Notes under the pieces: generated by a model
The model's input: only the letters and a program-made list of their open reading frames with translations
Database searches by the model: none
Told to the model about the DNA's origin: nothing
DNA from: Marinitoga aeolica
GTDB lineage: Bacteria; Thermotogota; Thermotogae; Petrotogales; Petrotogaceae
DNA: 64,000 nt
Assembly: GCF_029910535.1 (NCBI RefSeq)
Contig: NZ_CP069362.1
Span: 1,178,001-1,242,000 of the forward strand
Direction: 5' to 3'
Shown: positions 18,259 through 59,612 of the stretch, in pieces
Numbering within the stretch: position 1 is the stretch's first letter
Layout: each line of letters begins with the position of its first letter
Made by a program: the position numbers and the translations under genes

Positions 18259-19293
18259 ATGTGGCAATTATTTTTAATAATATCATTAATGCATGTATTA
18301 TTTGTAGCTATAGCAATAATATATAATGTTTTTAGCAAAAAAATTGATATGAATGTTTCTAATATAGATATTTCTAATTTTCCTAAAATAAGTATTTTAA
18401 TTCCAGCATATAATGAAGAAAAAAATATTGAAAATAAAATTAAAAATATTCTTAGTCAAAATTATCCAAAAGATAAATTAGAGATATTAATAGGTTCGGA
18501 TGGTTCAACAGATAGGACAGCTGAAAAGGCTAGAAAAGTTGAAAATGTAAAAGTTTTTGAATTTGATCGTTCAGGAAAAGCTAGTGTTTTAAATAAATTA
18601 TACCAAAAATCATCCGGAGATTATATATTAGTCTCTGATGCAGATACATTGTTTTTATCAAAAAATGCATTAAAAAATGCTGTTCTAAGTAATAGTGAAA
18701 TGGTAACAGCAATTGTTGGAAGTGATGAACTACCAGGATTGAAAAAATATTGGAATATAGAATTTAATGTAAGGAATTTTGAAAGTCAATTTGGGAAATG
18801 TGTTGTTTCTAGTGGTACATTTATTTTTGTTAAAAGAGAATATTTTCCTGAAATACCTTCTCACATTATTGCGGATGACTTATTTATACCCTTGTGGGTT
18901 ATAAAAAATGGCGGAAAAAGTATTCAAAATGATAGCATAATATGTAAAACAGAAAAAGAAAATTATACGACAAGGTCTTATTTTAAGAAAAAAATGAGAG
19001 TAGTTAGAGGTGGAATACAAACATTATTTGAATATTTTGAATTGAAATTAGATTTTTTATCTTTCTCTTTTTTCTTTCTACATAAAATTAGTAGATGGTA
19101 TATGGCATTATTTTTTACACTATTCTTATTGTTTTTTGATGTAAAACTGTTTTTATCATATATATCAGTATCTTTACTTCTTTTTCTAGTATTTAAAAAG
19201 TTTAGAATGCTTATGATAGATTTATATGTACCCGTAATAGCGACAATTTTAGAATTCATCAAACCAACAAAATTTGGTGGATGGGATTTTTAA
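18259..19293 (+). CDS. membrane-anchored glycosyltransferase family 2
   Basis: A 344-aa GT-A enzyme. One N-terminal membrane helix (2-23) precedes the GT2 domain with ISILIPAYNEEKNIE, GSDGSTDRT and the metal-binding DADT motif. Two or more C-terminal membrane helices (about 265-320) follow. The layout resembles HasA/BcsA-like synthases but is short. It likely adds a sugar to the lipid-linked repeat unit. GGAGGCATC precedes ATG 18259. Confidence 0.85.
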   Translation: MWQLFLIISLMHVLFVAIAIIYNVFSKKIDMNVSNIDISNFPKISILIPAYNEEKNIENKIKNILSQNYPKDKLEILIGSDGSTDRTAEKARKVENVKVFEFDRSGKASVLNKLYQKSSGDYILVSDADTLFLSKNALKNAVLSNSEMVTAIVGSDELPGLKKYWNIEFNVRNFESQFGKCVVSSGTFIFVKREYFPEIPSHIIADDLFIPLWVIKNGGKSIQNDSIICKTEKENYTTRSYFKKKMRVVRGGIQTLFEYFELKLDFLSFSFFFLHKISRWYMALFFTLFLLFFDVKLFLSYISVSLLLFLVFKKFRMLMIDLYVPVIATILEFIKPTKFGGWDF

Positions 19294-19294
19294 A

Positions 19295-20509
19295 ATGGGA
19301 GTTGATAAAATTTCCAACAAAGTTTTTAATTTTTTGATATTTGGTTTTTTTTGGTTACCTGTAGTTTTTTTTGGTGATGATTTAATTTATATTTCTGAGA
19401 TAATAATTGCATTTTTATTTATAATGTTTATTAAAACAGAGAAAATAGAATTTAAAAGTTATTGGTATTTTTTAATTCCAATAATTCTTTTTTTCTATAG
19501 AATAACATTTGCCCCATTTGCAGGAGCAGTTTTAGTAGCGAAAGAGTATATATTATTTTTTAAACAAATAGAATATTTTGTAATATTGACAGTTTTTTAC
19601 CATTTTTTTCAAAAAAATAAATATGAGGAAAGCAATTTATTTAATATTTTGAATGTTCTGTTTATAACATACGCTATATATATTTTTTATGATGGGATTA
19701 GTCATTTGGGTCAATTTCATAGAGCTGTGATACCTTTTAAAAAAGGTGTAAGTAGTAGTTTATCTGGATTGTTTTCTTCTATTAGTATATATTTTTCATA
19801 TTTGAACATAATCAACAATAGAAAAAAATTTTTAAACATTTTTTTTCTATTAATAGGTTTGGGAGCTCTTATATTAACTTTTTCACGAACTTCTTTACTT
19901 GCAATGATTTTAGTTTTTTCTGTTTTTTATATTTTTGAATTTATATATTCAAAGAATAAGAAAATAATAATATTAAGTATATTAGTATTATTATTAATTT
20001 TAAGTACTTTAAGTATAGTTTATAATTCTTTGGATTATAAATATGGTTTAAAATCATTTGATATAAATGGAATAATAAGAATGTTAAAATATGATAGATC
20101 ATTTTATATTAGAATACATTATATTGCAAAACCAGCAATAGAAAAAGATATAGGAGAAGATACTTTTCATACTTTTATAAATACATTATTTGGAAATATT
20201 AAAAATTCACAAAATATTTGGGATAATCAGTATTTGATGTTATTTAATAATTTCGGTCTTATTGGGGTTTTTTCATATTTTTTAATATATTTAAATATTT
20301 ATATAATGATATTAAAGAAATATAATAATATATTTAATAAATTAATGTTTCTAATAACTACGCATATAGTTATTTCTGGAATTACATTAGAATCTATGAC
20401 AAATATATATGTTTTTTTAAATATATATTATATATTAATTGCGTATTTAATATATCAATCTGGAGGTTGCGAAAATGGATACAGTTACTATAATAAAGAA
20501 TATGTATAA
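19295..20509 (+). CDS. wzy: O-antigen/polysaccharide polymerase (Wzy-like)
   Basis: About 404 aa, with some ten hydrophobic helices and a larger periplasmic loop before the last helices (about 255-320). The FSRTSLLAMIL segment resembles the Wzy_C/O-antigen ligase family. It probably polymerises repeat units in the periplasm, together with the Wzz gene that follows. ATG 19295 is used; an in-frame TTG at 19274 overlaps the previous gene. Its 3' end overlaps the next gene by 35 bp. Ligase (WaaL) activity cannot be excluded. Confidence 0.78.
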   Translation: MGVDKISNKVFNFLIFGFFWLPVVFFGDDLIYISEIIIAFLFIMFIKTEKIEFKSYWYFLIPIILFFYRITFAPFAGAVLVAKEYILFFKQIEYFVILTVFYHFFQKNKYEESNLFNILNVLFITYAIYIFYDGISHLGQFHRAVIPFKKGVSSSLSGLFSSISIYFSYLNIINNRKKFLNIFFLLIGLGALILTFSRTSLLAMILVFSVFYIFEFIYSKNKKIIILSILVLLLILSTLSIVYNSLDYKYGLKSFDINGIIRMLKYDRSFYIRIHYIAKPAIEKDIGEDTFHTFINTLFGNIKNSQNIWDNQYLMLFNNFGLIGVFSYFLIYLNIYIMILKKYNNIFNKLMFLITTHIVISGITLESMTNIYVFLNIYYILIAYLIYQSGGCENGYSYYNKEYV

Positions 20510-32729: not shown

Positions 32730-32744
32730 TTTGGTGGTGATATA

Positions 32745-34190
32745 ATAAAAAGCGTAATAACTAAAATAAAAAAAAGCACAACTATAAAATCGGGAATATG
32801 GTATACAATAACAGATTTTATATTAAAAGGAATGGCATTTATAACCATTCCTATTTTTACAAGATTATTATCAGTTGAAGAGTATGGAATAGTTTCAGTA
32901 TATACCACATTTGTAGGAATTTTTGCTATAATTACAGGAATAGATTTGCATGCATCTATAGGAACAGGAATAAATGATTTTAAAGAAAAAAAGAAAGAAT
33001 TTTTATCTTCTGTATTATTTTTATCATTATTAAGTTTTATCTCAGTTTTTATTATTATTTATATATTTAGAGAATTATTATCCAATGTATTTAATATAGA
33101 GAGTAATATATTAATTTTTTCAGTAATATCAGGATATTTCGCTTTTATATTTAATTATTATATAACAATAAAAGTATTTGAAAAAAATTATAAAGTAAAA
33201 TCATTATTGAGTTTATTAAAAGCAATATCTACAGTTATATTGTCTATAATACTTGTAATAATAATAAAAAACAATAAATATTTTGGAAGAATATACGGTG
33301 AGTTAATTGTAGGAATTATAATCTCAACTATTTTATTTTTTTTAATATTAGCAAAAGGTAAGAAGATCATATGGATAAAAGCATGGAAATATTCAATGTT
33401 GATAGGAGTACCGTTAATATTACATAATCTATCTGGAATAATATTATCTCAATTTGATAGATTAGCAATACAAAAAATTATAGGATCAGAGAAAGTAGGA
33501 TTATATAGCTATGCATATACCCTGGGAATGATACCATTAATAATTTTAGGAGCTACTAATTTAGCATGGGTTCCATGGTTCTATGATAAAATGTATGAAA
33601 ATAAAAAAGAAGAAATATTTAAGAAAGTAAAATATTACAATGAGATATTCTTACTATTATTATTGCTAATGTTTATTATAATACCAGAGCTTGGTATTAT
33701 AATGGCGCCTAAAAATTATAGTACTTCTTTGATAATACTTCCGATAATAATAGCATCATATTACATGCAATTCTTATATACAATATATGTAAATTTTGCA
33801 TTTTTCTATAAAAAAACAGGATCAATATCCTTTGGAACATTATTAGCAGGTATAATAAATATAGTATTAAATATATGGTTAATACCAATATTTGGATACG
33901 AGATTGCTGCTATTACTACATTAATATCATATATATTTTTATTATTATTCCATGGAATAAACGTATTATACAACCTAAATGATAAAACAATAACTCCAAA
34001 ATACATACTTGGTTTTGCATTTTTAATAATATCTTTTAGTTTAATTCAATATATAATATCTAAATATTTTGGAATGTTTTCTATAACTGAGCGTATTTCA
34101 AGAATATTAATTTTTGGGAGTGTTGGGGCAATAGTTGGTATAAAAATATATAAAAAATCAAAAAATCTTTTTAAGGGGGATTTTATTTGA
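32745..34190 (+). CDS. wzx: polysaccharide repeat-unit flippase (Wzx), apparent AUA start
   Basis: A MATE/PST-superfamily flippase of about 481 aa with 12 or more membrane helices. The first ATG (32832) lies inside the first helix and would cut off the conserved N-terminus (GIWYTITDFILKG then MAFITIPIFTRLLSVEEYG). The frame is open from 32730 with no ATG, GTG or TTG before 32832. GGTGATATA places an ATA at 32745 exactly where operon neighbours have ATG (GGTGA plus four bases). Translation from AUA, or a recent ATG-to-ATA change, is inferred. It exports lipid-linked repeat units for Wzy. Confidence 0.8.
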   Translation: MKSVITKIKKSTTIKSGIWYTITDFILKGMAFITIPIFTRLLSVEEYGIVSVYTTFVGIFAIITGIDLHASIGTGINDFKEKKKEFLSSVLFLSLLSFISVFIIIYIFRELLSNVFNIESNILIFSVISGYFAFIFNYYITIKVFEKNYKVKSLLSLLKAISTVILSIILVIIIKNNKYFGRIYGELIVGIIISTILFFLILAKGKKIIWIKAWKYSMLIGVPLILHNLSGIILSQFDRLAIQKIIGSEKVGLYSYAYTLGMIPLIILGATNLAWVPWFYDKMYENKKEEIFKKVKYYNEIFLLLLLLMFIIIPELGIIMAPKNYSTSLIILPIIIASYYMQFLYTIYVNFAFFYKKTGSISFGTLLAGIINIVLNIWLIPIFGYEIAAITTLISYIFLLLFHGINVLYNLNDKTITPKYILGFAFLIISFSLIQYIISKYFGMFSITERISRILIFGSVGAIVGIKIYKKSKNLFKGDFI

Positions 34191-45277: not shown

Positions 45278-46438
45278 ATGAAAACCGCAATAATAACAGG
45301 GATAACAGGACAAGATGGTAGTTATTTAGCAGAATACTTACTAGAAAAAGGATATGAAGTACATGGATTCATAAGAAGATCATCTTCTTTCAATACAAAA
45401 AGAATAGATCATTTATATAAAGATCCTCATGAAGAAAATGTTAGATTATTCCTACATTATAATGACTTAACAGACTCAACAAATATAATAAGATTAATAC
45501 AAAAAATACAGCCAGATGAAATATACAATTTAGCAGCACAAAGTCATGTAAAAGTAAGTTTTGAAATACCAGAATATACAGCAAATTCAGATGCGTTAGG
45601 AACATTAAGAATATTAGAAGCAATACATTTACTAGGATTAGAAAAGAAAACAAAATTCTATCAAGCAAGTACATCAGAATTATATGGAAAAGTACAAGAA
45701 ATACCACAAAATGAAAAGACACCATTCTATCCAAGAAGTCCATATGCAGCAGCAAAATTATATGCATATTGGATAACAGTAAACTATAGAGAAGCATATA
45801 ATATGTTTGCATGTAATGGAATACTATTCAATCACGAATCAGAAAGAAGAGGAGAAACATTCGTCACAAGAAAAATAACAAGAGCAGCAACAAGAATATT
45901 AGTAGGAAATCAAGAAAAATTATACCTAGGTAACTTAAGTGCAAAAAGAGACTGGGGATATGCAAAAGATTATATAAAAGGAATGTGGATGATATTGCAA
46001 CAAGAAAAACCAGATGACTATGTACTAGCAACAGGAGAAACACATGAAGTAAGAGAATTCTGTGAAAAAACATTTAATAATTTAGGAATAGAAATAGAAT
46101 GGAAAGGAATAGGAATAGATGAAAAAGGAATAATCAAAAAAATAGATAAAAATAAAACAAAAGAAATAATAGAAAAATTAAAAGAAAAACATCCAGACCT
46201 AAAAGAATTTAAAATAAATACAGATCATCTAAAAGAAGGACAAGAAATAATAGCAGTAGATCCAAAATATTTCAGACCAACAGAAGTAGATATATTGCTT
46301 GGTGATCCAACAAAAGCAAAAGAAAAGTTAGGATGGAAACCAGAAACAACATTTGAAGAATTAGTAAAAATAATGACAGAATATGACTTAGGATTAGCAA
46401 TAAAAGAAAAACACAGAAATGAATGGATAAAAGAATAA
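45278..46438 (+). CDS. gmd: GDP-mannose 4,6-dehydratase
   Basis: 386 aa: [62 protein letters not shown] and [15 protein letters not shown] are Gmd signatures. It forms GDP-4-keto-6-deoxymannose. A lysine-rich insertion (about 280-320) lies before the conserved [17 protein letters not shown]. Confidence 0.94.
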
Positions 46439-46486: not shown

Positions 46487-47554
46487 ATGGAAAAAAATGC
46501 AAAAATATATGTAGCTGGACATAGAGGATTAGTAGGTTCTGCAATAGTAAGAAAACTAAAAGAATTAGGATATACAAATATAATAACAAGAACACATAAA
46601 GAATTAGACCTAACAGATCAAAAAGCAACAAGAGAATTCTTTGAAAAAGAAAAACCAGAATATGTATTCCTAGCAGCAGCAAAAGTAGGAGGAATATTAG
46701 CAAATAACACATACAAAGCAGAATTCATATATCAAAATATAATGATAGCAGCAAATGTAATAGAAGCATCATATAGATATGGAGTAAAAAAACTACTAAA
46801 TCTTGGATCATCATGTATATATCCCAAATATGCAAAACAACCATTAAAAGAAGAATACTTACTAACAGGAGAATTAGAACCAACAAATGAACCATATGCA
46901 ATAGCAAAAATATCAGCAATAAAAATGTGTAGATATTATAATGAACAATATGGAACAAACTTCATAAGTGTAATGCCAACAAACCTATATGGACCAAATG
47001 ATAACTTCAATTTAGAAACTGCACATGTATTACCAGCATTAATAAGAAAATTCTATTTAGGAAAATTATTAAACGAAGGAAATTATGAAAAAATAAAAGA
47101 AAACATAAAAAAATATCCAATAGGATTTGGATTAGATAAAGAAATAGATGAAAATAACAATGAAACAATAGACAAAGTATTAAAACAAGTAGGAATAACA
47201 AAAGAAAACATAACATTATGGGGAACAGGAGAAGTATATAGAGAATTCTTGTATGTAGATGACATGGCAGATGCATGTGTATATCTAATGAGAAACGTAG
47301 ATGCAGAAGAAATGGGAAAGATATCGCCAGATTATTTTGTAAATATAGGAGCAGGAAAAGATATAACAATAAAAGAATTAGCAAAAATGATAAAAGAAAT
47401 AATAGGATACCAAGGAGAAATAATACATGACACAACAAAACCTGATGGAACCCCAAGAAAATTATTAGATGTAACAAGATTAAATAAATTAGGATGGAAA
47501 TATAGTGTTGAATTGGATGAGGGTATTAGAAGAATTTTTGAATATTTATATTAG
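46487..47554 (+). CDS. fcl: GDP-L-fucose synthase
   Basis: 355 aa: [41 protein letters not shown] and PYAIAKIS (Tyr-X3-Lys). It epimerises and reduces the Gmd product to GDP-L-fucose. It is longer than the ~320 aa E. coli form owing to a charged insertion of about 45 residues (~190-240) before [18 protein letters not shown] debris begins within a few bases of its stop. Confidence 0.92.
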
Positions 47555-47566
47555 TTATCTGAATAT

Positions 47567-47690
47567 TCTAACAATTTGAGAAAAAATAAGTGAACTCATT
47601 TTTCAAGTAAACAATAAAATCATTAAAATTAATTTAATTTCATTAGAATTATTATTTTGATTAGAAAAAAGATTAAAAATAGAATCATTT
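47567..47690 (-). mobile_element. 3' fragment of the same decayed rve-type IS as at 54985-55950
   Basis: This stretch aligns by eye with about 54995-55105 (shared pieces include ACTCATTTTT, GATTAGAAAAAAGATTAAA versus GATAAGAAAAAAGATTAAA, and AATTTAATTTC). It represents the transposase C-terminal end and terminal region on the minus strand. It abuts, without a gap, the IS3 remnant that follows. Confidence 0.5.
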
Positions 47691-47936
47691 TATTCAATAA
47701 TCAAAAAAAGAAGAAATATGGGTAAATAATTATAAAACCTTTGAAGAAGCAAAAATAAAAATATTTGAATACATAGAATCATTTTATAACAGAAAAAGAA
47801 TACATAGTTCTATCAATTACATGACTCCACAAGAAAAAGAAGATGAAGCCTTAAAATTGTTAGAAAAAAGTTACATTGCTTAAAATGCTATTTTTTTAGT
47901 TAAACTTAGCCTGCCCACCGTTCTTGGATAAGACCA
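47676..47936 (+). pseudogene. 3' remnant of an IS3-family element (OrfB C-terminus)
   Basis: It encodes the last ~60 residues of an IS3 Orf[19 protein letters not shown] then [15 protein letters not shown], stop at 47881-47883, followed by the right end ...GGATAAGACCA (to 47936). Bases 47731-47936 match 53273-53477 except for one extra T at 47817/47818. The 5' part of the element is missing. It keeps the correct reading frame that the downstream copy has lost. Confidence 0.8.
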
Positions 47937-48420
47937 TTAATCAAATCATTATTTATTTTTATAAAATCTAAATTATTAACTATATGAAATTGTTGAAAAG
48001 GAAGGTGTTTAATCGATTTCAACTAAGACAAATATTTATAATTATAAAAAATTATTAACTTTTCCAAACTTTTTTAATAATAGTAATGCTTAAGAATAGC
48101 TTTATAAGAAGAAAATTTTTCCTGTAAAAAGAATAATGAGTTTTTTAAAAAAATTATATCAATAATACTGAAGATAAAAATAATTTTTTAATAAAAGTGT
48201 GTTTAGGATCTAAGCTAATATAAATTTGAGTGTACTTATATCTACATTTTGGACATATAAAAGATAAGTCAATTATTTGGAAATATACTGTTGAACTAAA
48301 AGAGTCTCCGGTAATAAGTCAAGAGGAAAATAAAAAAAACAATGAAAATTAACAAGGATGTAAAACAACAAGAATTCAGAATAAAACGATAGAAAAAAGA
48401 CTAAAACAAATATTATGCAC
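47937..48420. other. noncoding AT-rich debris between IS remnants
   Basis: No intact gene. Around 48230-48440 a plus-strand reading hints at a decayed zinc-ribbon-like transposase N-terminus, but stops and frameshifts make this too weak to call. Near 48417-48429 there is a small hairpin TGCAC-AGG-GTGCA that may mark an IS110 end. Confidence 0.4.
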
Positions 48421-48467
48421 AGGGTGCAAAAAATAGAATTATTTAATTGTTTAGTTAATTGTATTGC

Positions 48468-49557
48468 TTAATTATCACCATCATCCTTCAAAAATACCAT
48501 ATTTTTAGAAGGTTGAGATAATTCAATAGGATTATAGGATGAATTATTTTTAAGCATATAATAAATACTTCTAACTAATTTTCTGGCAGTAAAAATAACA
48601 GTCGCTTTGTGAGATTTACCTTGAGCTCTTTTCTTTTTGTAATAAGATTTAAGTACAGGATCATACCTAATAGCACAAGAAGCTGCTTGATATAGGTAAT
48701 ATCTTAGATATTTATTACCTCTTTTGGATAAATCTTTGTGATTATCAGTTTTTTTACCAGAATCATTTAAATCCCAGCGTAGTCCAGCATAAGAAGATAA
48801 TTTAGAATCAGATGCGAAATTATCAATATTAATAATTTCAGAAATAATAGACATAGATAAAACAACAGAAATACCTGGTATAGTATCAAGAGTAGTGTTT
48901 AAACGTTTAAAATATAAGTTTAGTTGTTTGTCAATACGATCGATTTGAGATTTCAAAAGTTTAATTCTATCAAAAGCAAGAGCAATATTAAAATTAGCTG
49001 TATTAAAATCATTCAAAGTAGAACGATAAATCTTAGTAATAATAGACTTAAGTTTCTTAGCAAAGTCAATACCGAGTCTTCTTTTATATAAAGAAGAAAC
49101 TAAATTGAATAAATCATTAATAGACTATTAACAATATCTTCAGCAGAATAATCAGATAAAATATTAATATGATATCTAGAACGAGTAATTTCTCTAAGAG
49201 ATTCAAAAAAAGAATCTTTAGGAACAAAAGGAGTAAGATTCTCAGGAAACTTAATAGCAGTTTTTTGAATAACTTTAGCATCTAATTTATCAGTTTTAGG
49301 CCAATTAAGAATCTTTCTAGTATTATGAACATCAGAAGGAGAAACAAAAAACAACTCATCAAAACCGTGAGATTTAAGAAAAACAAAAATGTTTTTAGAA
49401 TAAACACCAGTTATAAGCAAAAGCAACATCTTTGCCCTTGAAAATAGAAACAAGTTTCTCATAACCATCAATAGAGTTATCAACAACACCTTTGATAGAA
49501 TTATCAAGATAAAAATCAAGCTTATCTTTAGAAACATCAATACCAACAAACAACATA
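48468..49557 (-). pseudogene. IS110-family transposase with two frameshifts
   Basis: From ATG 49557 the minus strand reads MLFVGIDVSKDKLDFYL, the DEDD N-terminus of IS110 transposases. A +1 disruption near 49408-49416 shifts the frame, which continues with FVSPSDVHNTRKILNWPKTDKLDAK. A second shift near 49118-49130 is followed by the Transposase_20 C-terminal domain: DTIPGISVVLSMSIISEI, SYAGLRWDLNDSGKK and SKRGNKYLRYYLYQAA. All domains are present, so inactivation is recent. Confidence 0.85.
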
Positions 49558-49564
49558 GAAACAC

Positions 49565-49760
49565 AACCTTTCAGAATTAGCTTCTAACTCTGGGTATATA
49601 AGAAAAGAACCTTATGGTACGTAGGAGCTCAAACTCATTCTCCGGTAGCAATTCAACTTATATACCAAAGTTAGTCAGACTATTCAAAGCGCCTTTTGTG
49701 CAGGAGGTGACAGAATTACTTTAGTTATATAATAACTCAGAGTTAGAATACTTTTTTTAA
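49565..49760 (-). ncRNA. putative IS110 bridge-RNA region
   Basis: The noncoding end upstream of the IS110 transposase. It is bounded by an 11-bp inverted repeat TTCTAACTCTG (49582-49592) / CAGAGTTAGAA (49738-49748). Nested within is a 10-bp stem GGTATATAAG (49593-49602) / CTTATATACC (49657-49666) enclosing an internal GGAG...CTCC hairpin. IS110-group elements encode a two-loop bridge RNA in this position that specifies target and donor sites. The fold is inferred by eye; the loop-target pairing was not tested. Confidence 0.55.
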
Positions 49761-49833
49761 AAATAAATATCATATTTATTAATTATATGAAAACATTATA
49801 CATAAGAATATTTCTTTGAAGAGGAGAGGAAAA

Positions 49834-50805
49834 ATGTTAGAGAATTCTGAGAAATTGCGAGTAAGATTAATAGTTATTACAATAAATTACAATTCAGCGG
49901 AATATACATTAAAAGCTATAGATTCTTTCATTAAAAATCATCAAGGGTTATTATATAAATTAATTGTAGTTGATAATAACTCTTTAAAAGATGATTATGA
50001 AAAATTGCTAAAAAACATTCAACAAATTAATACTAATAATAATATAATAATAATTAGATCAAATAACAATTTAGGATTTTCTAAGGGAAATAATTTAGGT
50101 TTGAAATATGCTTATGATAACTATATATTTGATTATCTGTTATTAATGAATAATGACATAATAATACATACAAAAGGATTATTAAATAAAATGATATATG
50201 ATATAGAAAAAAAAGGTTCTATATATGTAGCTGAAATGCCATTAATAAATAATATTAAACAAAAAAAAGAAGCTGAAAAACAAATTCAAATTAGAAAAAT
50301 TCCAAATCTTTTTAGCTTATTTATAGTCTCAAGTCCAATTTTAAATAGAATATTTTTTCCAGTAAAAAATAACTTTATATATAAATCGAAAATGCCATTT
50401 AAAAATGATGTAGATGCTTATGTTCTTTCTGGAGCTTTTATGCTTTTATCAAAGAGATTTATAAATATGATCAAATATTTTGACGTTGATACATTCTTAT
50501 ATGGAGAAGAAATTATAATAGGTTATCAAATAAAAAAATATGGATACAAAGGATTTTTAAATACGAAATACATTGTTGATCATGTTCAAGGTGCTTCCTC
50601 TGAAAAAAAATCATTTTCTGGTTTTACATTTTTTCATAAATATAAAAGTGCAAGTATATTTGCAAAAAAGTATTTAAAAGCGAAAAAGTATTATCTTTTT
50701 TTCTTTAAAGTAAAATTTATTATTGAGGCATTTGTTTTAGATATGTTAATAAATAAATCAATAAAGGAATTTTTAATATTTTATAAATTATTGAAAAAAC
50801 TATAA
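49834..50805 (+). CDS. glycosyltransferase family 2 (rhamnosyltransferase-like)
   Basis: 323 aa GT-A. VITINYNSAEYTLKAIDSF, VVDNNSLKDDYEKLL, SNNNLGFSKGNNLGLKYA and LMNNDIIIHTKG follow the pattern of dTDP-rhamnosyl transferases (RfbF/WsaF type), where NND replaces DxD. Later motifs SGAFMLLSKR and YGEEIIIGYQIKKYG fit this. ATG 49834 with GAGGAGAGG upstream is used. The rml genes at 56179-59612 would supply its donor. Confidence 0.83.
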   Translation: MLENSEKLRVRLIVITINYNSAEYTLKAIDSFIKNHQGLLYKLIVVDNNSLKDDYEKLLKNIQQINTNNNIIIIRSNNNLGFSKGNNLGLKYAYDNYIFDYLLLMNNDIIIHTKGLLNKMIYDIEKKGSIYVAEMPLINNIKQKKEAEKQIQIRKIPNLFSLFIVSSPILNRIFFPVKNNFIYKSKMPFKNDVDAYVLSGAFMLLSKRFINMIKYFDVDTFLYGEEIIIGYQIKKYGYKGFLNTKYIVDHVQGASSEKKSFSGFTFFHKYKSASIFAKKYLKAKKYYLFFFKVKFIIEAFVLDMLINKSIKEFLIFYKLLKKL

Positions 50806-50822
50806 ATATTTAAAGGTGTAAT

Positions 50823-52040
50823 ATGGAAAGAATGGGAAAAAAGATAGAAAAAAAATTTATTCTAGCTATTTTAATATTTCAGATTCTTTTTTATTTAACA
50901 GGTCCTTTAGAATACATTGGGATAAATAATAGAATAGTTACTATTTTTTCATATATGTTAATTTTTATGGTTTTATTAAGTATTGATAGAACTATAATTT
51001 TTAAATTATCAGTATATAGAGCGTTCTTATTTATATATATTACTTTAAAATTTCTTTTTAGTATATATCTTAAAATACCTCTTTTACAAATTGGAGTGGC
51101 ATATTCTAAATTTTTGCTTTTATTATTATTGTTGCAATTTATTGAAGAAATGAAAGCATATTTTTCTATTAAAAAATTTGAAAAAATGTATATAATTTTT
51201 ATTTCATGGTTATTATTAATTTCTATTATTCAATATGGAAAAATAGAGCCTTTTTCAACTATCTTTACAGAATATGGTGGAAATTTTATTAGCGGTAGAA
51301 TATTCTTAGATAATTTTTATTTAAGAGTTAATGGTGGAATTGGAGGAACGGTAATTGATTTTGCAGTGCTATTAATTATATTTTATTATATTATAATTTT
51401 TTCTAATATAAAAAAAACATTATTTATTATTTTAAATATTTCTTTTATTATAATGTTTTTTTTATCTTTCTCAAGAGTTTCTATTCTCTCTCTTTTTTTT
51501 ATAATACTGAGTATTTTTATTAGATATAGTGATAAATTATATAATAAAAAAATTTTTATAATATTTATTATATTATTATTATTATTTAATGTTATATTTA
51601 TTATTGTAGCGAGGGATTTATTAATATCATTTTCTGATTTATTTTTAAATAATAAGATTGAGGATATTAAAGAAAGAAGAGTTTCAACATGGTTGAATGC
51701 TTTTAAAGAAGTTAACTTTAGAATACTTATTGGGAATGAATTTGGTAAAAATACAGGATTACCAATAAAAGATAATAAAAATATAACAGATAGTTTTTTA
51801 TTTTCTATATTAGATGATTTGGGTATAATTGGATTATTTATATATATTTTGGTTATTTTGGAACCAATTAATAAATTAAGGAAAAAGATATCAAAAAAAT
51901 ATTTTTTGATTTCTATCGTTATGATAATTAATATAATTTTTATACAAATTATAAATAGTGCTTTTTTTTATCATTTAAATATTATTAATTATTCCATATT
52001 AATTTTATTTATTAGCAAAAAAACAACAAGCAAAAAATAA
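50823..52040 (+). CDS. wzy: polysaccharide polymerase (Wzy-like), second copy
   Basis: 405 aa, about ten to eleven membrane helices rich in Ile, Leu and Phe, with a periplasmic loop (about 270-320) and FSRVSILSLFF, similar to FSRTSLL in the first Wzy. No sequence motif is decisive; the call rests on topology and locus. It is flanked on both sides by transposon-derived sequence, consistent with an exchangeable module. Confidence 0.72.
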   Translation: MERMGKKIEKKFILAILIFQILFYLTGPLEYIGINNRIVTIFSYMLIFMVLLSIDRTIIFKLSVYRAFLFIYITLKFLFSIYLKIPLLQIGVAYSKFLLLLLLLQFIEEMKAYFSIKKFEKMYIIFISWLLLISIIQYGKIEPFSTIFTEYGGNFISGRIFLDNFYLRVNGGIGGTVIDFAVLLIIFYYIIIFSNIKKTLFIILNISFIIMFFLSFSRVSILSLFFIILSIFIRYSDKLYNKKIFIIFIILLLLFNVIFIIVARDLLISFSDLFLNNKIEDIKERRVSTWLNAFKEVNFRILIGNEFGKNTGLPIKDNKNITDSFLFSILDDLGIIGLFIYILVILEPINKLRKKISKKYFLISIVMIINIIFIQIINSAFFYHLNIINYSILILFISKKTTSKK

Positions 52041-52192
52041 TTTTATTCACAATTTAGACAATAAATTTATTGTTAAGATAATTGCTTATCTTTAGTTATT
52101 AGAGAATAAAAAAATTTTTTTGCAAAATAAAAAATTATTGAGTTTACGTAGTGAATTTTTTTATGTATTCAAAAAGTAGAAATAAAAATGAC
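52041..52192. other. short noncoding gap before the IS3 element
   Basis: It holds the perfect 16-bp palindrome ACAATAAATTTATTGT (52058-52073), possibly part of a weak terminator. Otherwise AT-rich with nothing recognisable. Confidence 0.4.
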
Positions 52193-52269
52193 TGGATCTA
52201 ACCAAAAAAAGTGGGCACCAAAAAGTTAACAAAGAATAGTATAATAAAAACAGAAAGAAGGTGACCCAT

Positions 52270-52545
52270 ATGAGTAGAAATGGTAAAAGGTATAGTGATG
52301 AATTCAAAGAACAAATAGTAGAATTGCATGAAATGGGAAAAAAAGTGTATGACTTAAGTGACGAATATGGCATAAGTGCAGTAACAATATATAATTGGAT
52401 AAAAGAAACAAAACCAGTAGCAGACGGTGAATTTAGTAAAAAGGAATATGATAAAATGAAAAAAGAAATACAGCAATTAAGAATGGAAAATGAAATATTA
52501 AAAAAAGCTACAGCCATATTCGCACGAAAACAACAAGAGAAATAG
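52270..52545 (+). CDS. IS3-family transposase OrfA
   Basis: 91 aa: helix-turn-helix of the HTH_Tnp_1 type (RYSDEFKEQIVELHEMGKK, YGISAVTIYNWIKE) and a leucine-zipper end (QQLRMENEILKKATAIFA). ATG 52270 follows AGAAGGTG. A slippery run of seven A followed by G (52500-52507) in zero frame A-AAA-AAA would allow -1 frameshifting into the orfB frame, as is usual in the family. The stop overlaps the OrfB GTG as TAGTG. Confidence 0.85.
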   Translation: MSRNGKRYSDEFKEQIVELHEMGKKVYDLSDEYGISAVTIYNWIKETKPVADGEFSKKEYDKMKKEIQQLRMENEILKKATAIFARKQQEK

Positions 52546-53424
52546 TGAAATTCATAGAAAAATACAAAAAATATTATCCAATAAAAATGATATGTAAAGT
52601 ATTAAAATTTGCAAGGAGCACATATTATAAAGCAAAAAATCATAAAAAAAGTAATCTAGAAAAGTTCAATGAAATACTGGATCAAAGAATATTAGAGATA
52701 TATAATGAAAGTAAAAAACGTTATGGAGCACCAAAAATACAAAAAGTACTAGAAAAAAACGGTATAAAAGTTAATATAAAAACGGTTCAAAAAAGGATGA
52801 AAAAATTAGGAATCCACTCAATAGTAATAAAAAAATTCAAAAATCACAAAACAAAAGAAGAAATCAAACAATTGCCAAACATAATAAATCGAGATTTTGA
52901 AACAACAACGATAAACCAGAAATGGTGTGGAGATATAACTTATATAAATATACAAGGAAAACTGGCTGGACATACTTAGCAAGTGTAATGGATATGCATA
53001 CAAACAAAATAATAGGATATTCATACTCTAAAAAAATGGATAAAGAACTAGTAATAAAAGCAATGAAAAATGCATGTATAAATATAAAAGAAACACAAGG
53101 AATCATATTTCACAGCGATTTAGGAACTCAGTATACAAGTAAAGAATTCAATAAATTATTAAAAGAAAAAGGCATTCAACATTCATACAGTAAAAAGGGA
53201 ACACCATATGACAACGCAAAAATAGAATCATTTCATTCAATAATTAAAAAAGAAGAAATATATGTAAATAGTTATAAAACCTTTGAAGAAGCAAAAATAA
53301 AAATATTTGAATACATAGAATCATTTTATAACAGAAAAAGAATACATAGTTCTATCAATACATGACTCCACAAGAAAAAGAAGATGAAGCCTTAAAATTG
53401 TTAGAAAAAAGTTACATTGCTTAA
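52545..53424 (+). pseudogene. IS3-family transposase OrfB, two frameshifts
   Basis: The frame starts in -1 relative to orfA and runs through the HTH_21-like region (RYGAPKIQKVLEKNGIKV) to WCGDITYINI (first DDE Asp). A lost base near 52960-52970 moves it to another frame with YLASVMDMHTNKIIGYS, HSDLGTQYTS (second Asp) and DNAKIESFHSIIK (Glu). A second 1-base loss near 53359 then truncates the end; the 47676 remnant shows the intact version. The element is therefore non-autonomous unless these are sequencing errors. Confidence 0.85.
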
Positions 53425-53477
53425 AATGCTATTTTTTTAGTTAAACTTAGCCTGCCCACCGTTCTTGGATAAGACCA

Positions 53478-53759
53478 GACACTTATTAACTCAATATTAA
53501 AATATTAAATTAGATAAGAATTGATAAAAAAATTTTCAATTCAATATTAGCACAAAAGAAGGATGTTTGAGATTATTTTATAAAAAGGGAAGCTGCTTTA
53601 TGTTCTTTATATGATATCTTTTTTAAAAAACCTGAATATTTTTTATAGAAAAAAGAAAATTTCTATATGGAGAGGCTTTATTTATCTTAAAAATAAGAGA
53701 AATTTATATTTATTGTTGTAAATTGTAAAATATTTTTGTATTTATAGTGGAGGTATATT
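53478..53759. other. intergenic gap after the IS3 element
   Basis: An AT-rich stretch with no recognisable gene or repeat. It contains the GGAGG ribosome site (about 53748-53752) of the next gene and probably its promoter. Confidence 0.4.
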
Positions 53760-54719
53760 ATGGCATTTACTACATGTGTTGTCATGTGCACATATAATGG
53801 TGAAAAATTTTTAGAAGAACAATTAGATAGCATTCTTAACCAAAGTAAAAAAATCGATAAGATTTATATTACTGATGATAACTCTACGGATAATACAATT
53901 GAAATTTTGAAAAAATATGAAAGAGAATATTATGAGATTATTGATTTAAAGATTAATGATAAAAACATTGGGTATATAAAAAATTTCGAAAAAACATTAA
54001 AAAGAGCAAAAGAAGATATTATATTTTTGGCTGATCAAGATGATATATGGCAAAAATATAAAATTGAAAAAATATTAAAATTTTTTCATGAAAATCCATG
54101 GAAATCTTATGTATTTTCTGATGCATATTTAAAAGAAGGAGATCAAATAAAAGATTATTCACTATTTGATATTTATTTTAAAAAAAAGAAAAGAAAGCAT
54201 TATGAAAAAAATCCTATAAAATCATTGTTACCTAAAAATTTTGTAACAGGAGCAACTTTAGCTATTCAAAAAAAATATCTAAATTATGCATTTCCATTTA
54301 CAGGAAAAATTCCACATGATTATGAAATAGTTTTAAAATTGTCATATTTTAGTGAAGGTGATTATATTGAAGATAAATTGATAACCTATAGAATGCACAA
54401 AAACCAAACAATGGGTGTTCATTATGGCATAAAAAAATTTTTTCGTATAATTAAAAATTTAGATGAAGTATTCAATAAGGAAAAAAATATATTGTTATTA
54501 AACAATTTATATAAAGCATTTGAAGAAATTAATCATGCGTATAAAAACAACTCAAATCAAGAAATAGAAAATTTAATAGAAAATTATATAAGTTTTTTAA
54601 AATTTAGAAGAGATCTATATTTATCAAATGAAAAAAAAATAAAAATTTTTAGTAGATTAAGGGATTATTTAAAGTTTGACAATTTTAATTCTTTATTTAA
54701 GGATATATTTTCAATATAA
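53760..54719 (+). CDS. glycosyltransferase family 2
   Basis: 319 aa: TTCVVMCTYNGEKFLEEQL, YITDDNSTDNTIEIL, the metal motif in FLADQDDIWQKYK (DQDD) and HDYEIVLKLSYF. The DQDDIW and YRMHKNQTMG motifs are typical of rhamnosyl- or galactofuranosyl-type GT2 enzymes in O-antigen loci. GTGGAGG precedes ATG 53760. It lies between two transposon-derived segments. Confidence 0.85.
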   Translation: MAFTTCVVMCTYNGEKFLEEQLDSILNQSKKIDKIYITDDNSTDNTIEILKKYEREYYEIIDLKINDKNIGYIKNFEKTLKRAKEDIIFLADQDDIWQKYKIEKILKFFHENPWKSYVFSDAYLKEGDQIKDYSLFDIYFKKKKRKHYEKNPIKSLLPKNFVTGATLAIQKKYLNYAFPFTGKIPHDYEIVLKLSYFSEGDYIEDKLITYRMHKNQTMGVHYGIKKFFRIIKNLDEVFNKEKNILLLNNLYKAFEEINHAYKNNSNQEIENLIENYISFLKFRRDLYLSNEKKIKIFSRLRDYLKFDNFNSLFKDIFSI

Positions 54720-55950: not shown

Positions 55951-56178
55951 TTTTAAAAAGTTAATTCGTCTTCAGTATTTTAAGAAACAATTCTTTTTCA
56001 AGAAGAAGACGTTCATAATATTCGGTTCTTTATTCTATGAGGTGATTACGTTAAAAATAAAAAGAAAAAGATAATATTTTCAAAAAATTAAGAAAAAACT
56101 AGATTCAGATTTCCGGTAGACAGTCAAATGAATAAAAAAGAGGTTAATTAAGAATATTTTTTTGAAGAGGAGGCATTT
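55951..56178. other. noncoding stretch upstream of rmlA
   Basis: AT-rich, no gene. It ends with the strong GAGGAGG ribosome site (about 56166-56172) of rmlA. Any promoter for the rml operon must lie here or within the decayed IS; no consensus pair is clear. Confidence 0.4.
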
Positions 56179-57054
56179 ATGAAATCAATAATACTATCAG
56201 GAGGTTCAGGAACAAGATTATATCCAATAACAAAAGCAGTAAGTAAACAATTATTGCCAGTATACGATAAACCAATGATATATTATCCATTATCAACAGT
56301 AATGTTATCAGGAATAAGAGAAATATTAATAATAACTAACCCAGAATACATAGAATTATACAAAAGATTATTTGGAGATGGCTCACATTTAGGATTAAGA
56401 ATAGAATATAAAATACAAGAAGAACCAAGAGGATTAGCAGATGCATTTTTAGTAGGAGAAGAATTCATAAATGGAGATAAATGTATGCTAACCCTTGGAG
56501 ATAATATATTCTATGGTCAAGGATTTAGTTCCATGTTAAAAAGAGCAGGAAGTTTAGAAAAAGGAGCAGTAATATTTGGATATTACGTAAAAGATCCAAG
56601 AAGTTATGGAGTAGTAGAATTTGATGAAAATGGAAAAGCAATAAGCTTAGAAGAAAAGCCAGAAAAGCCAAAAAGCAACTATGCAATACCAGGATTATAT
56701 TTTTACGATGAAAGAGTAGTAGAATTTGCAAAACAATTAAAACCATCAAAAAGAGGAGAATTAGAAATAACAGATTTAAATAGAATATATTTGGAATTAG
56801 GGGAACTAACAGTAGAAAAATTTGGAAGAGGATTTGCATGGCTTGATATGGGAACATATCAAGGATTACTAGAAGCATCAAATTTTGTAGAAACAATACA
56901 AAAAAGACAAGGTTTCTACATAGGATGTATAGAAGAAATTGCATATAGAATGGGATATATAAATAGAGAAGAATTATATAGACTAGGAAAAGAATTAGAA
57001 AAAACAGAATACGGAAGATATTTAATGGAAATAGCAGATGGAGTGAGAGAATGA
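56179..57054 (+). CDS. rmlA: glucose-1-phosphate thymidylyltransferase
   Basis: 291 aa: [20 protein letters not shown] then [25 protein letters not shown] and [20 protein letters not shown] are RmlA signatures. It makes dTDP-glucose from Glc-1-P and dTTP. First gene of rmlACDB, overlapping rmlC by 4 bp. Confidence 0.95.
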
Positions 57055-57688: not shown

Positions 57689-58543
57689 GTGAAAATATTG
57701 ATAACAGGAGCAAAAGGACAATTAGGACAAGAATTTCAAAAATTATTCCAAAAAGTTAAAATAGAATATATACCAACAGATCATGAAGAATTAGATATAA
57801 CAAATCTAAAAAAAATAAGAGAATTTGTAAAAGATAAAAATATAACTCATATAATTAACTGTGCAGCATATAATCTAGTAGATAAAGCAGAAGAAGATTG
57901 GAAAACAGCATATAGTGTAAATGGGTTAGCAGTAAAAAATTTAGCAATAGTAGCAAATGAAATAAATGCAGAACTAATACATTACTCAACAGATTATGTA
58001 TTTGGAGGAAATAAAAACGAACCATATACAATATATGATAAACCAAATCCCATAAACAAATATGGAAAAAGTAAAGAATTAGGTGAAAGGTTCATACAAA
58101 ATATAGCAAATAAATACTACCTCATAAGAGTAAGTTGGGTATTTGGAATAGGAAATAACAACTTTGCCAAAAAAGTAATACAATGGTCAAAAAACAATGA
58201 AGTATTAAAAATAGCAGATGATGAAATAAGTGCACCAACATATGCAGTAGATTTAGCAAATGCAACATATAAACTAATACAAGAAAAAGCATATGGATTA
58301 TATCATATAACCAATACATCATGTTCAAGATATGAATGGGCAGAATATATACTAAAAAAAATAAATTGGAATAGGAAATTAGAAAGAGCAAGTAAAGATG
58401 ATTTTAATTTACCAGCAAAAAGACCTGGATATTCAGTATTAGATAATTATGGATTAAAAGAAACAATAAACTATGAAATGCCAACATGGCAAAATGCAAC
58501 AGAAAGATTCTTAAAAGAATTAAAAGAAACGGGGGAAATATAA
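57689..58543 (+). CDS. rmlD: dTDP-4-dehydrorhamnose reductase
   Basis: About 284 aa: ILITGAKGQLGQEF, LDITNLKKIREFV, CAAYNLVDKAEEDW, STDYVFGG and NKYGKSKELGE. It reduces the last intermediate to dTDP-L-rhamnose. GTG 57689 with AAGGAATG at a normal distance gives the canonical MKILITG start; ATG 57680 would abut the ribosome site. Confidence 0.94.
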   Translation: MKILITGAKGQLGQEFQKLFQKVKIEYIPTDHEELDITNLKKIREFVKDKNITHIINCAAYNLVDKAEEDWKTAYSVNGLAVKNLAIVANEINAELIHYSTDYVFGGNKNEPYTIYDKPNPINKYGKSKELGERFIQNIANKYYLIRVSWVFGIGNNNFAKKVIQWSKNNEVLKIADDEISAPTYAVDLANATYKLIQEKAYGLYHITNTSCSRYEWAEYILKKINWNRKLERASKDDFNLPAKRPGYSVLDNYGLKETINYEMPTWQNATERFLKELKETGEI

Positions 58544-58544
58544 A

Positions 58545-59612
58545 ATGAATATACTAGTAACAGGAGTAGCAGGATTCATAGGAAGTAACTTTGTATATTA
58601 TTACTTAGAAAAATACAAAGATAGAAAAATAATAGGACTAGATAAACTAACATATGCAGGAAACTTAGAAAATTTGGAAAAATTAACTCCAGAACAAAAA
58701 GAAAGGTTTGTATTCATAAAAGGAGATATAAACAACCAAGAATTAATAGAATACATATTCGAAACATATAAAATAGAAGGAATAATAAACTTTGCAGCAG
58801 AAAGTCATGTAGATAGATCAATACATGATCCACAAATATTCTTAAAAACAAATGTAATAGGAACACAAACATTACTAAATGTAGCAAAAAAATACTGGCA
58901 AAAAGATACACAAAAATTTATAGATGGAGTAAAGTTTTTACAGATATCAACAGATGAAGTATATGGTTCATTGGGACCAACAGGATACTTCACAGAAAAG
59001 ACACCACTAGATCCACATAGTCCATATTCAGCAAGTAAAGCATCAGCAGACTTAATAGTAAAAGCATATTATGACACATATAAAATGCCAACAAACATAA
59101 CAAGATGTTCAAACAATTATGGACCATATCAATTTCCAGAAAAATTAATACCATTAATGATAAACAATGCATTAAACCACAAAAAATTACCAGTATATGG
59201 AGATGGAAAACAAATAAGAGATTGGTTATATGTAACAGATCATTGTAGAGCAATAGATTTGGTATTTGAAAATGGAAGAACAGGAGAAGTATATAACATA
59301 GGAGGACATAACGAAAAAGAAAACATATACATAGTAAAAAAGATAATAGAAATACTCAGAGAAAAAACAGGAGATAAAGAAATAAATGAGAAATTAATAA
59401 AACACGTAAAAGACAGACTAGGACATGATAGAAGATATGGAATAGATCCAACAAAAATAAAGGAAGAATTAGGATGGGAACCAGAAATAATGTTTGATGA
59501 AGGAATAGAAAAAACAATAGAATGGTATTTAGAAAATCAAGACTGGATGAAAAGAGTAATTTCTGGTGAGTATTTGGAATTTTATGAGAAGAATTATGGA
59601 GGGAAAAAATGA
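58545..59612 (+). CDS. rmlB: dTDP-glucose 4,6-dehydratase
   Basis: 355 aa: TGVAGFIGSNFVYYYL, LDKLTYAGNLENL, FAAESHVDRSIHDP, STDEVYGSLG, PYSASKASADL and NNYGPYQFPEKLIPLMI. It makes dTDP-4-keto-6-deoxyglucose. It overlaps the acetyltransferase gene by 4 bp. The rml order A-C-D-B differs from the common B-D-A-C. Confidence 0.95.
   Translation: MNILVTGVAGFIGSNFVYYYLEKYKDRKIIGLDKLTYAGNLENLEKLTPEQKERFVFIKGDINNQELIEYIFETYKIEGIINFAAESHVDRSIHDPQIFLKTNVIGTQTLLNVAKKYWQKDTQKFIDGVKFLQISTDEVYGSLGPTGYFTEKTPLDPHSPYSASKASADLIVKAYYDTYKMPTNITRCSNNYGPYQFPEKLIPLMINNALNHKKLPVYGDGKQIRDWLYVTDHCRAIDLVFENGRTGEVYNIGGHNEKENIYIVKKIIEILREKTGDKEINEKLIKHVKDRLGHDRRYGIDPTKIKEELGWEPEIMFDEGIEKTIEWYLENQDWMKRVISGEYLEFYEKNYGGKK

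What the first reader, a model, noticed from the sequence alone, without database searches (positions are those of the whole stretch)
47731..53477. Near-identical IS3 direct repeats bracket a GT-Wzy module
Bases 47731-47936 and 53273-53477 match apart from one base and lie in the same orientation, flanking the IS110 copy, the 49834 glycosyltransferase and the second Wzy. Homologous recombination between them would delete or swap this 5.5-kb module and change polymer linkage.
Basis: partly seen in the sequence, partly recalled or inferred. Interest (0 to 1): 0.5.

Follow-up and report, generated by a model that had tools for sequence, protein, structure and literature searches.

The report
Dead insertion-sequence relics in polysaccharide locus
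Two matching pieces of a dead mobile element really do flank a sugar-transferase and polymerase gene pair, but they appear to have landed separately and look like ordinary scars in a gene cluster that varies between species, not a proven switch for the cell's sugar coat.

Summary
The repeats are real: 47675-47936 and 53218-53477 are 97.3% identical over 262 columns, in direct orientation. They are not two IS3 copies. The right one is the 3' end of a near-full, frameshifted IS3-family element (52193-53477). The left one is only a 3' fragment, fused on its 5' side to a fragment of another IS. The right element is flanked by a 3-bp duplication (GAC/GAC) and sits inside the end of an older IS ("Z") whose homology continues across the insertion point. 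The left relic abuts a different point of another Z relic, in the opposite Z orientation. So these look like independent insertions in an IS graveyard, not the ends of one transposed or exchanged cassette. GT and Wzy have no match in 6 of 6 congeners. GT 53760, beyond the right repeat, has only partial matches there. Deletion by recombination between the repeats is possible, and clustered differences hint weakly at gene conversion, but no deleted or swapped form was seen. Larger repeats exist: two wzx copies share a 425-bp identical block, and gmd-fcl is repeated in a congener. Ordinary; low interest.

The parts
46487..47554 (+). fcl (GDP-fucose synthase-like), preceded by gmd 45278-46438: left border of the variable slot
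   Evidence: gmd and fcl DNA at 87-91% in G004 (3 copies) and G005 (1 copy); full-length fcl protein match in 2 of 6 congeners. Gene names are recalled; no family search was run on these two.
47574..47687 (+). 5' fragment of a second IS ('ISX'), fused to the IS3 relic
   Evidence: 79% identity to ISX positions 37-162 of 1180; four ISX copies matched over 1138 bases elsewhere in the own genome
47675..47936 (+). left repeat: 3' relic of the IS3-family element, fused to ISX across a 13-nt imperfect shared stretch (11 of 13)
   Evidence: 97.3% to 53218-53477; junction sequences
47937..48197 (-). relic of a third IS ('Z'); the left IS3 relic abuts it at Z position about 634 of 1080
   Evidence: 72.8% to L147 2924-3210. 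The Z ORF in L147 gave no Pfam match, so calling Z an IS rests on its repeated, ORF-bearing form
48304..49802 (-). IS110-family relic, reading frame broken by several stops
   Evidence: Pfam PF01548 and PF02371 in two separate ORFs; stops in the single-frame translation; long matches at 80-93% in G002, G003 and G006
49816..50805 (+). family 2 glycosyltransferase (an ATG lies at 49834)
   Evidence: Pfam PF00535 E 1.1e-17; no match in 6 of 6 congeners
50823..52040 (+). Wzy/O-antigen ligase-like membrane protein (another Wzy-like protein lies at 19274-20509)
   Evidence: Pfam PF04932 E 1.8e-7, 31.5 bits, just under the 31.7 cut-off; 0 of 6 congeners; 2 of 103 phylum genomes, the own one and one 26% match
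52153..52192 (+). Z-element terminal sequence left of the IS3 insertion, ending in one copy of the 3-bp target duplication (52190-52192)
   Evidence: aligns to the Z end in L147: 0 of 1250 GC-matched control pieces reach its score, but 2 of 5 Z references gave no signal; 3-bp repeat
52193..53477 (+). near-full IS3-family element, orfB frameshifted twice; its 3' 260 bp (53218-53477) is the right repeat
   Evidence: ends TGG...CCA; Pfam HTH_Tnp_1, HTH_21, rve; frames 2 to 1 to 3 against one 309-aa frame in L114
53478..53664 (+). second copy of the target duplication (53478-53480) and the rest of the Z relic, in opposite orientation to the left Z relic
   Evidence: 69% to L147 3314-3118; junction-spanning alignment
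53760..54719 (+). family 2 glycosyltransferase outside the repeat-bracketed segment, without a close congener relative
   Evidence: PF00535 E 4.4e-26; all 6 congeners have matches at E <= 0.001, but partial, 26-42% identity
54974..56031 (+). longer, diverged ISX relic
   Evidence: 75.5% to ISX 21-1158 of 1180
56179..57054 (+). rmlA-like gene, start of the sugar genes to the right of the variable slot
   Evidence: relative in G002 (74% DNA, 67.7% protein) lying directly after an IS110 copy. Gene name recalled.

Best explanation
The repeats are scars of separate insertions of the same, now dead, IS3-family element into an exopolysaccharide locus that collects IS elements. Shown by sequence: the right copy lies in the end of an older Z-type element just downstream of wzy, between 3-bp direct repeats; the left copy abuts another Z relic at a different point; the left copy lacks its 5' part and is joined there, at a short imperfect homology, to an ISX fragment; both copies are frameshifted. 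Inferred: the GT and Wzy genes belong to a larger species-specific block (about 47.6-56.2 kb) between gmd-fcl and the rml genes, exchanged between species like other glycosyltransferase and polymerase genes, with the IS elements as passengers. The pair could still delete about 5.54 kb by homologous recombination, but nothing seen here shows that it does.
For: GAC/GAC flanks of 52193-53477; among related elements TAG/TAG in L114 and ATG/ATG for the outer ends in L117. Z homology runs across the insertion point. The Z points and orientations differ at the two IS3 copies. ISX-IS3 fusion at an 11/13 match. orfB in three frames here against one in L114. Only two substantial copies found in the genome. 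GT and Wzy in 0 of 6 congeners, and GT 53760 with partial matches only. Relics of the same IS families in the loci compared from G002, G004 and G005.
Against: A 3-bp duplication can arise by chance (1 in 64). Of 4 end pairings in related elements 2 match; L112 and the inner ends in L117 do not. Z homology is weak (69-73%) in AT-rich DNA, and 2 of 5 Z references gave no signal left of the insertion. The Z ORF has no Pfam match. Differences between the repeats are clustered (207-column run with one difference, permutation p 0.0027, statistic chosen after seeing the data), as gene conversion would give. The left copy's own duplication cannot be tested because its 5' end is gone. The low GC of GT and Wzy (18-21%) is not special: other glycosyltransferase and flippase genes of the window are 20-25%. 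Only 6 congeners were available, four of them drafts of 50-90 contigs and one 87% complete.
Confidence: 0.82

Rival explanations
1. One reading: the direct repeats are a working substrate, and homologous recombination between them deletes or swaps the GT-Wzy module and changes the polymer.
For: Direct orientation, 97.3% over 262 columns, 119-bp exact run; slot contents differ between congeners; clustered differences fit gene conversion between the copies.
Against: No recombinant or exchanged form was seen in the 7 genomes. The right copy appears to keep both original flanks. The species-specific stretch seems to extend past the right repeat. Larger repeats are present: wzx here and gmd-fcl in G004.
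Confidence: 0.12
2. Composite transposon: two IS3 copies moved the 5.5-kb segment in as one unit.
For: Two copies of one IS flank accessory genes.
Against: The left copy has no 5' end. The right copy alone is flanked by its own 3-bp duplication and interrupts an older element. Both copies are frameshifted.
Confidence: 0.02
3. The left repeat is a segmental duplication of the right copy's end, or the reverse, not a separate insertion.
For: The two copies are closer to each other (97%) than to the long matches in congeners (85% and 90%).
Against: Homology stops exactly at the IS terminus on the right side, and the flanking Z sequences are different points in opposite orientation.
Confidence: 0.04

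Closest known systems
IS3-family insertion sequences (orfA/orfB, DDE integrase core)
   Same: HTH_Tnp_1 orfA, HTH_21 plus rve orfB, orfB in the -1 frame and overlapping orfA in the relative L114, TGG...CCA ends and 3-bp target duplication
   Different: The window copy is dead (two orfB frameshifts) and the left copy is only a 3' fragment
[quoted passage not shown] the original Xiang et al. 1994 seen only in its reference list)
   Same: IS remnants between polysaccharide genes in a cluster whose wzy and transferase content differs from relatives
   Different: There the two parent clusters are known and the remnant sits at the junction between them. Here no parent cluster or recombinant is known, and the right IS looks like a simple insertion inside another element
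IS-scarred wzy region of Salmonella groups B1/B2/D3 (PMC3715488, passages read)
   Same: Forms that differ by IS presence and deletions around a wzy gene
   Different: Here the wzy-like ORF is uninterrupted and one genome per species is held

Membership tests
IS3 family | orfA with HTH and orfB with rve integrase core | tested here: met
   PF01527, PF13276 and PF00665 in consecutive ORFs of 52193-53477
IS3 family | orfB overlapping orfA in the -1 frame, read by programmed frameshifting | tested here: inconclusive
   In L114 orfA is in frame 3 (57-350) and orfB in frame 2 (302-1228), and the window copy starts the same way; frameshifting itself cannot be tested
IS3 family | terminal inverted repeats and short (3-5 bp) target duplication | tested here: met
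   Partly matching ends; GAC/GAC here, TAG/TAG in L114, ATG/ATG for the outer ends in L117; no match in L112 and for the inner ends in L117
IS3 family, active element | intact transposase | tested here: not met
   orfB split over three frames; left copy truncated and frameshifted
Composite transposon | two IS copies with usable outer ends bracketing cargo | tested here: not met
   The left copy has lost its 5' (outer) end
Composite transposon | target duplication at the outer ends and not around one copy alone | tested here: not met
   GAC/GAC flanks the right copy alone
IS-mediated module exchange in a polysaccharide locus | module alternates between strains with breakpoints at the IS | tested here: inconclusive
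   Module absent in 6 of 6 congeners, but breakpoints cannot be placed at the IS3 copies and no second strain of the species was available
Homologous-recombination substrate | long near-identical direct repeats | tested here: met
   97.3% over 262 columns, 119-bp exact run; whether they recombine is not testable here

The most novel reading that the evidence does not exclude
The locus carries nested direct repeats that work as a graded recombination switch for exopolysaccharide: the IS3 pair (5.5 kb, GT and Wzy) inside the two wzx copies (about 34 kb from copy to copy, holding the fucose-rhamnose cluster). Exchange already left its mark as the 425-bp identical block in wzx, and perhaps as conversion of the IS3 ends.
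Probability: 0.1. Interest if true: 0.45.

Novelty: new member of a known kind. Interest (0 to 1): 0.15.

Why it matters
If the repeats did recombine, a cell could lose a polymerase and one sugar transferase in one step and change its coat, which could matter for phage sensitivity and biofilms. As it stands, the locus is a worked example of IS-scarred, species-specific glycan genes. It also shows how nested insertions and target duplications can separate 'IS brackets a module' from 'IS moved a module'.

Tried and rejected
A scan of genome contigs with the Wzy protein found no confirmed relative. A scan with fcl gave 590 relatives, of which the best 80 were kept, none with a title that points to this genus; they were not used further. 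Rfam found nothing in the window at gathering thresholds. The phylum search for the GT gave matches in 27 of 103 genomes including the own one; the best-scoring non-self match is 33% identical, so no donor could be named. Composite transposon and segmental duplication were considered and rejected (see rivals). Low GC as a sign of foreign origin was dropped, because other glycan genes of the window are nearly as low.

Limits: in the DNA searches of whole genomes only 40 first-look candidates per genome were scored, so copy counts of IS relics are lower bounds. The protein searches show all candidates scored in the rows listed.

One congener contig of 2,231,407 bases agrees with what I recall as the size of the Marinitoga piezophila chromosome; this is recall and was not tested. 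Paper searches listed no paper whose title or abstract start is about IS elements in polysaccharide loci of this group. I read only the listings, plus passages of PMC3715488.

Full report
Observation. The repeats are there. 47675-47936 and 53218-53477 align over 262 columns with 7 differences (97.3%), in direct orientation, start-to-start about 5.54 kb. The longest exact run is 119 bp. In a window-against-itself BLAST (pieces of 150 bp or more, E <= 1e-20) the only other pair was 66.5% identical over 920 columns. In the own genome (2,444,241 bases, one contig) two searches found these two copies and otherwise only short matches; each scored 40 of its 356 and 235 first-look candidates.

What the repeats are. 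The right repeat is the 3' end of a 1285-bp IS3-family element at 52193-53477: HTH_Tnp_1, HTH_21 and rve domains, ends TGG...CCA. Against a related element in congener G004 (L114), whose orfB is one 309-aa frame, the window copy's orfB runs through frames 2, 1 and 3, so it carries two frameshifts. The left repeat is only a 3' fragment with its own one-base insertion. So these are a dead element and a fragment, not two IS copies.

How they got there. The right element is flanked by GAC on both sides. Among related elements, L114 has TAG on both sides and the outer ends in L117 have ATG on both sides; L112 and the inner ends in L117 do not match. When the flanks of the right element are joined, homology to an older element ('Z', for example L147 about 2291-3370) runs across the junction. 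The 60 bases left of the insertion scored 42 against the L147 Z end, reached by 1 of 1000 mononucleotide shuffles. The last 40 bases scored 34, reached by 0 of 1250 GC-matched control pieces; against L152 and L148 by 4 and 19 of 1250; two other references (L150, L151) gave no signal, with 637 and 700 of 1250 controls reaching the score. The left relic abuts Z at another place (about 634 of 1080 against 1024 of 1080) and in the opposite Z orientation. Z bears an ORF in L147 without a Pfam match; that it is an IS is inferred from its repeated form. On its 5' side the left relic runs into a fragment of a further IS ('ISX', 47574-47687; its own ORFs carry HTH_Tnp_1 and rve domains) across a 13-nt stretch with 11 matches, which looks like a short-homology deletion. 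The natural reading is two insertions of one IS family into older relics, then decay.

The enclosed genes. Between the repeats lie a broken IS110 relic (48304-49802), a family 2 glycosyltransferase (49816-50805) and a Wzy-like protein (50823-52040; Pfam Wzy_C at 31.5 bits, just under the 31.7 cut-off). Another Wzy-like protein (22.8 bits, below cut-off) lies at 19274-20509. The GT and Wzy have no match in 6 of 6 congeners. Among 103 genomes of the phylum the Wzy matched 2, the own one and one at 26% identity. GT 53760, outside the right repeat, has matches in all 6 congeners, but partial ones of 26-42% identity, best non-self E 1.0e-9 (in the own genome; 2.5e-9 in a congener), as expected of a common enzyme family. 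So the species-specific stretch seems to run from fcl to rmlA and not to be cut at the right IS3. GT, Wzy and GT 53760 are 18-21% GC against 27.6-29.3% for gmd, fcl and rmlA, but other glycosyltransferase and flippase genes in the window are 20-25%, so this is no sign of separate origin.

Relatives. A full-length fcl was found in 2 of 6 congeners: G004 three times and G005 once, plus a fragment in G004. gmd precedes it in all four. None of the four is followed by this GT and Wzy, which had no match in these genomes; other ORFs follow, which were not put through a family search. In the nine congener loci compared (L110-L118), relics of IS3 and ISX occur in G002, G004 and G005, and of Z and IS110 in G002 and G005. 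In G002 an ISX copy interrupts an IS3 copy.

Evidence for exchange, told fully. Six of the seven differences between the repeats lie in the first 55 columns; a run of 207 columns with one difference has permutation p 0.0027, with the statistic chosen after seeing the data. The longest difference-free run alone is not unusual (p 0.11). This is weak support for gene conversion. Stronger signs lie elsewhere. The wzx-like gene at 32735-34166 has a second copy, in the same orientation, beyond the window (G000:1245026-1246458), 88.5% identical, with a 425-bp identical block; 0 of 2000 random placements of the 164 differences gave such a run, the largest being 105. In G004 two direct gmd-fcl copies share 98.1% over 2287 bp with a 998-bp exact run. 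These are larger substrates than the IS3 pair.

Mechanism and verdict. Most likely (0.82): independent IS insertions and later decay in a species-specific exopolysaccharide block, with the repeats as passengers that could in principle recombine. Recombination between them as an actual switch: 0.12. Precedents for IS remnants at polysaccharide module junctions and around wzy exist in Salmonella (PMC3715488, passages read). The kind of thing is known; this instance is new only as an example.

Noticed in passing
window 32735-34166 and G000:C1:1245026-1246458 (L165 3527-4959): Two wzx-like flippase genes in direct orientation, 88.5% identical over 1436 columns with a 425-bp identical block, flank about 33 kb that hold the fucose-rhamnose cluster: a mosaic that points to gene conversion or exchange. 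Only the copy in the window was put through Pfam.
   Followed up: partly
G004:C2:1220282-1222571, 1227496-1229805, 1263948-1266238 (L111, L112): A congener has three gmd-fcl copies at 95.7-98.1% mutual identity; two are direct repeats bracketing a segment with other ORFs and IS relics.
   Followed up: partly
window 58504-59612 and G000:C1:848564-849674: The rmlB-like gene has a 95.4% identical second copy in another locus of the same genome, with a related rmlA (70.7%) nearby.
   Followed up: no
window 56051-56188: Short stretches just upstream of rmlA match near the ends of several contigs, mostly in G003, and other places in the genus, so they belong to a dispersed repeat (list cut off).
   Followed up: no
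window 49803-49826 and 56149-56172; L117 9948-9964: The 24 bases between the IS110 relic and the GT start match bases upstream of rmlA at 96%; in G002 an IS110 copy ends about 16 bases before rmlA. Possibly a shared IS110 target or end.
   Followed up: partly
L165 9994-17001 (beyond the right edge of the window): Four ORFs with near-identical starts (MRRFCTSGPVD...), three of 507-509 aa and one cut by the end of the stretch, right after the cluster.
   Followed up: no
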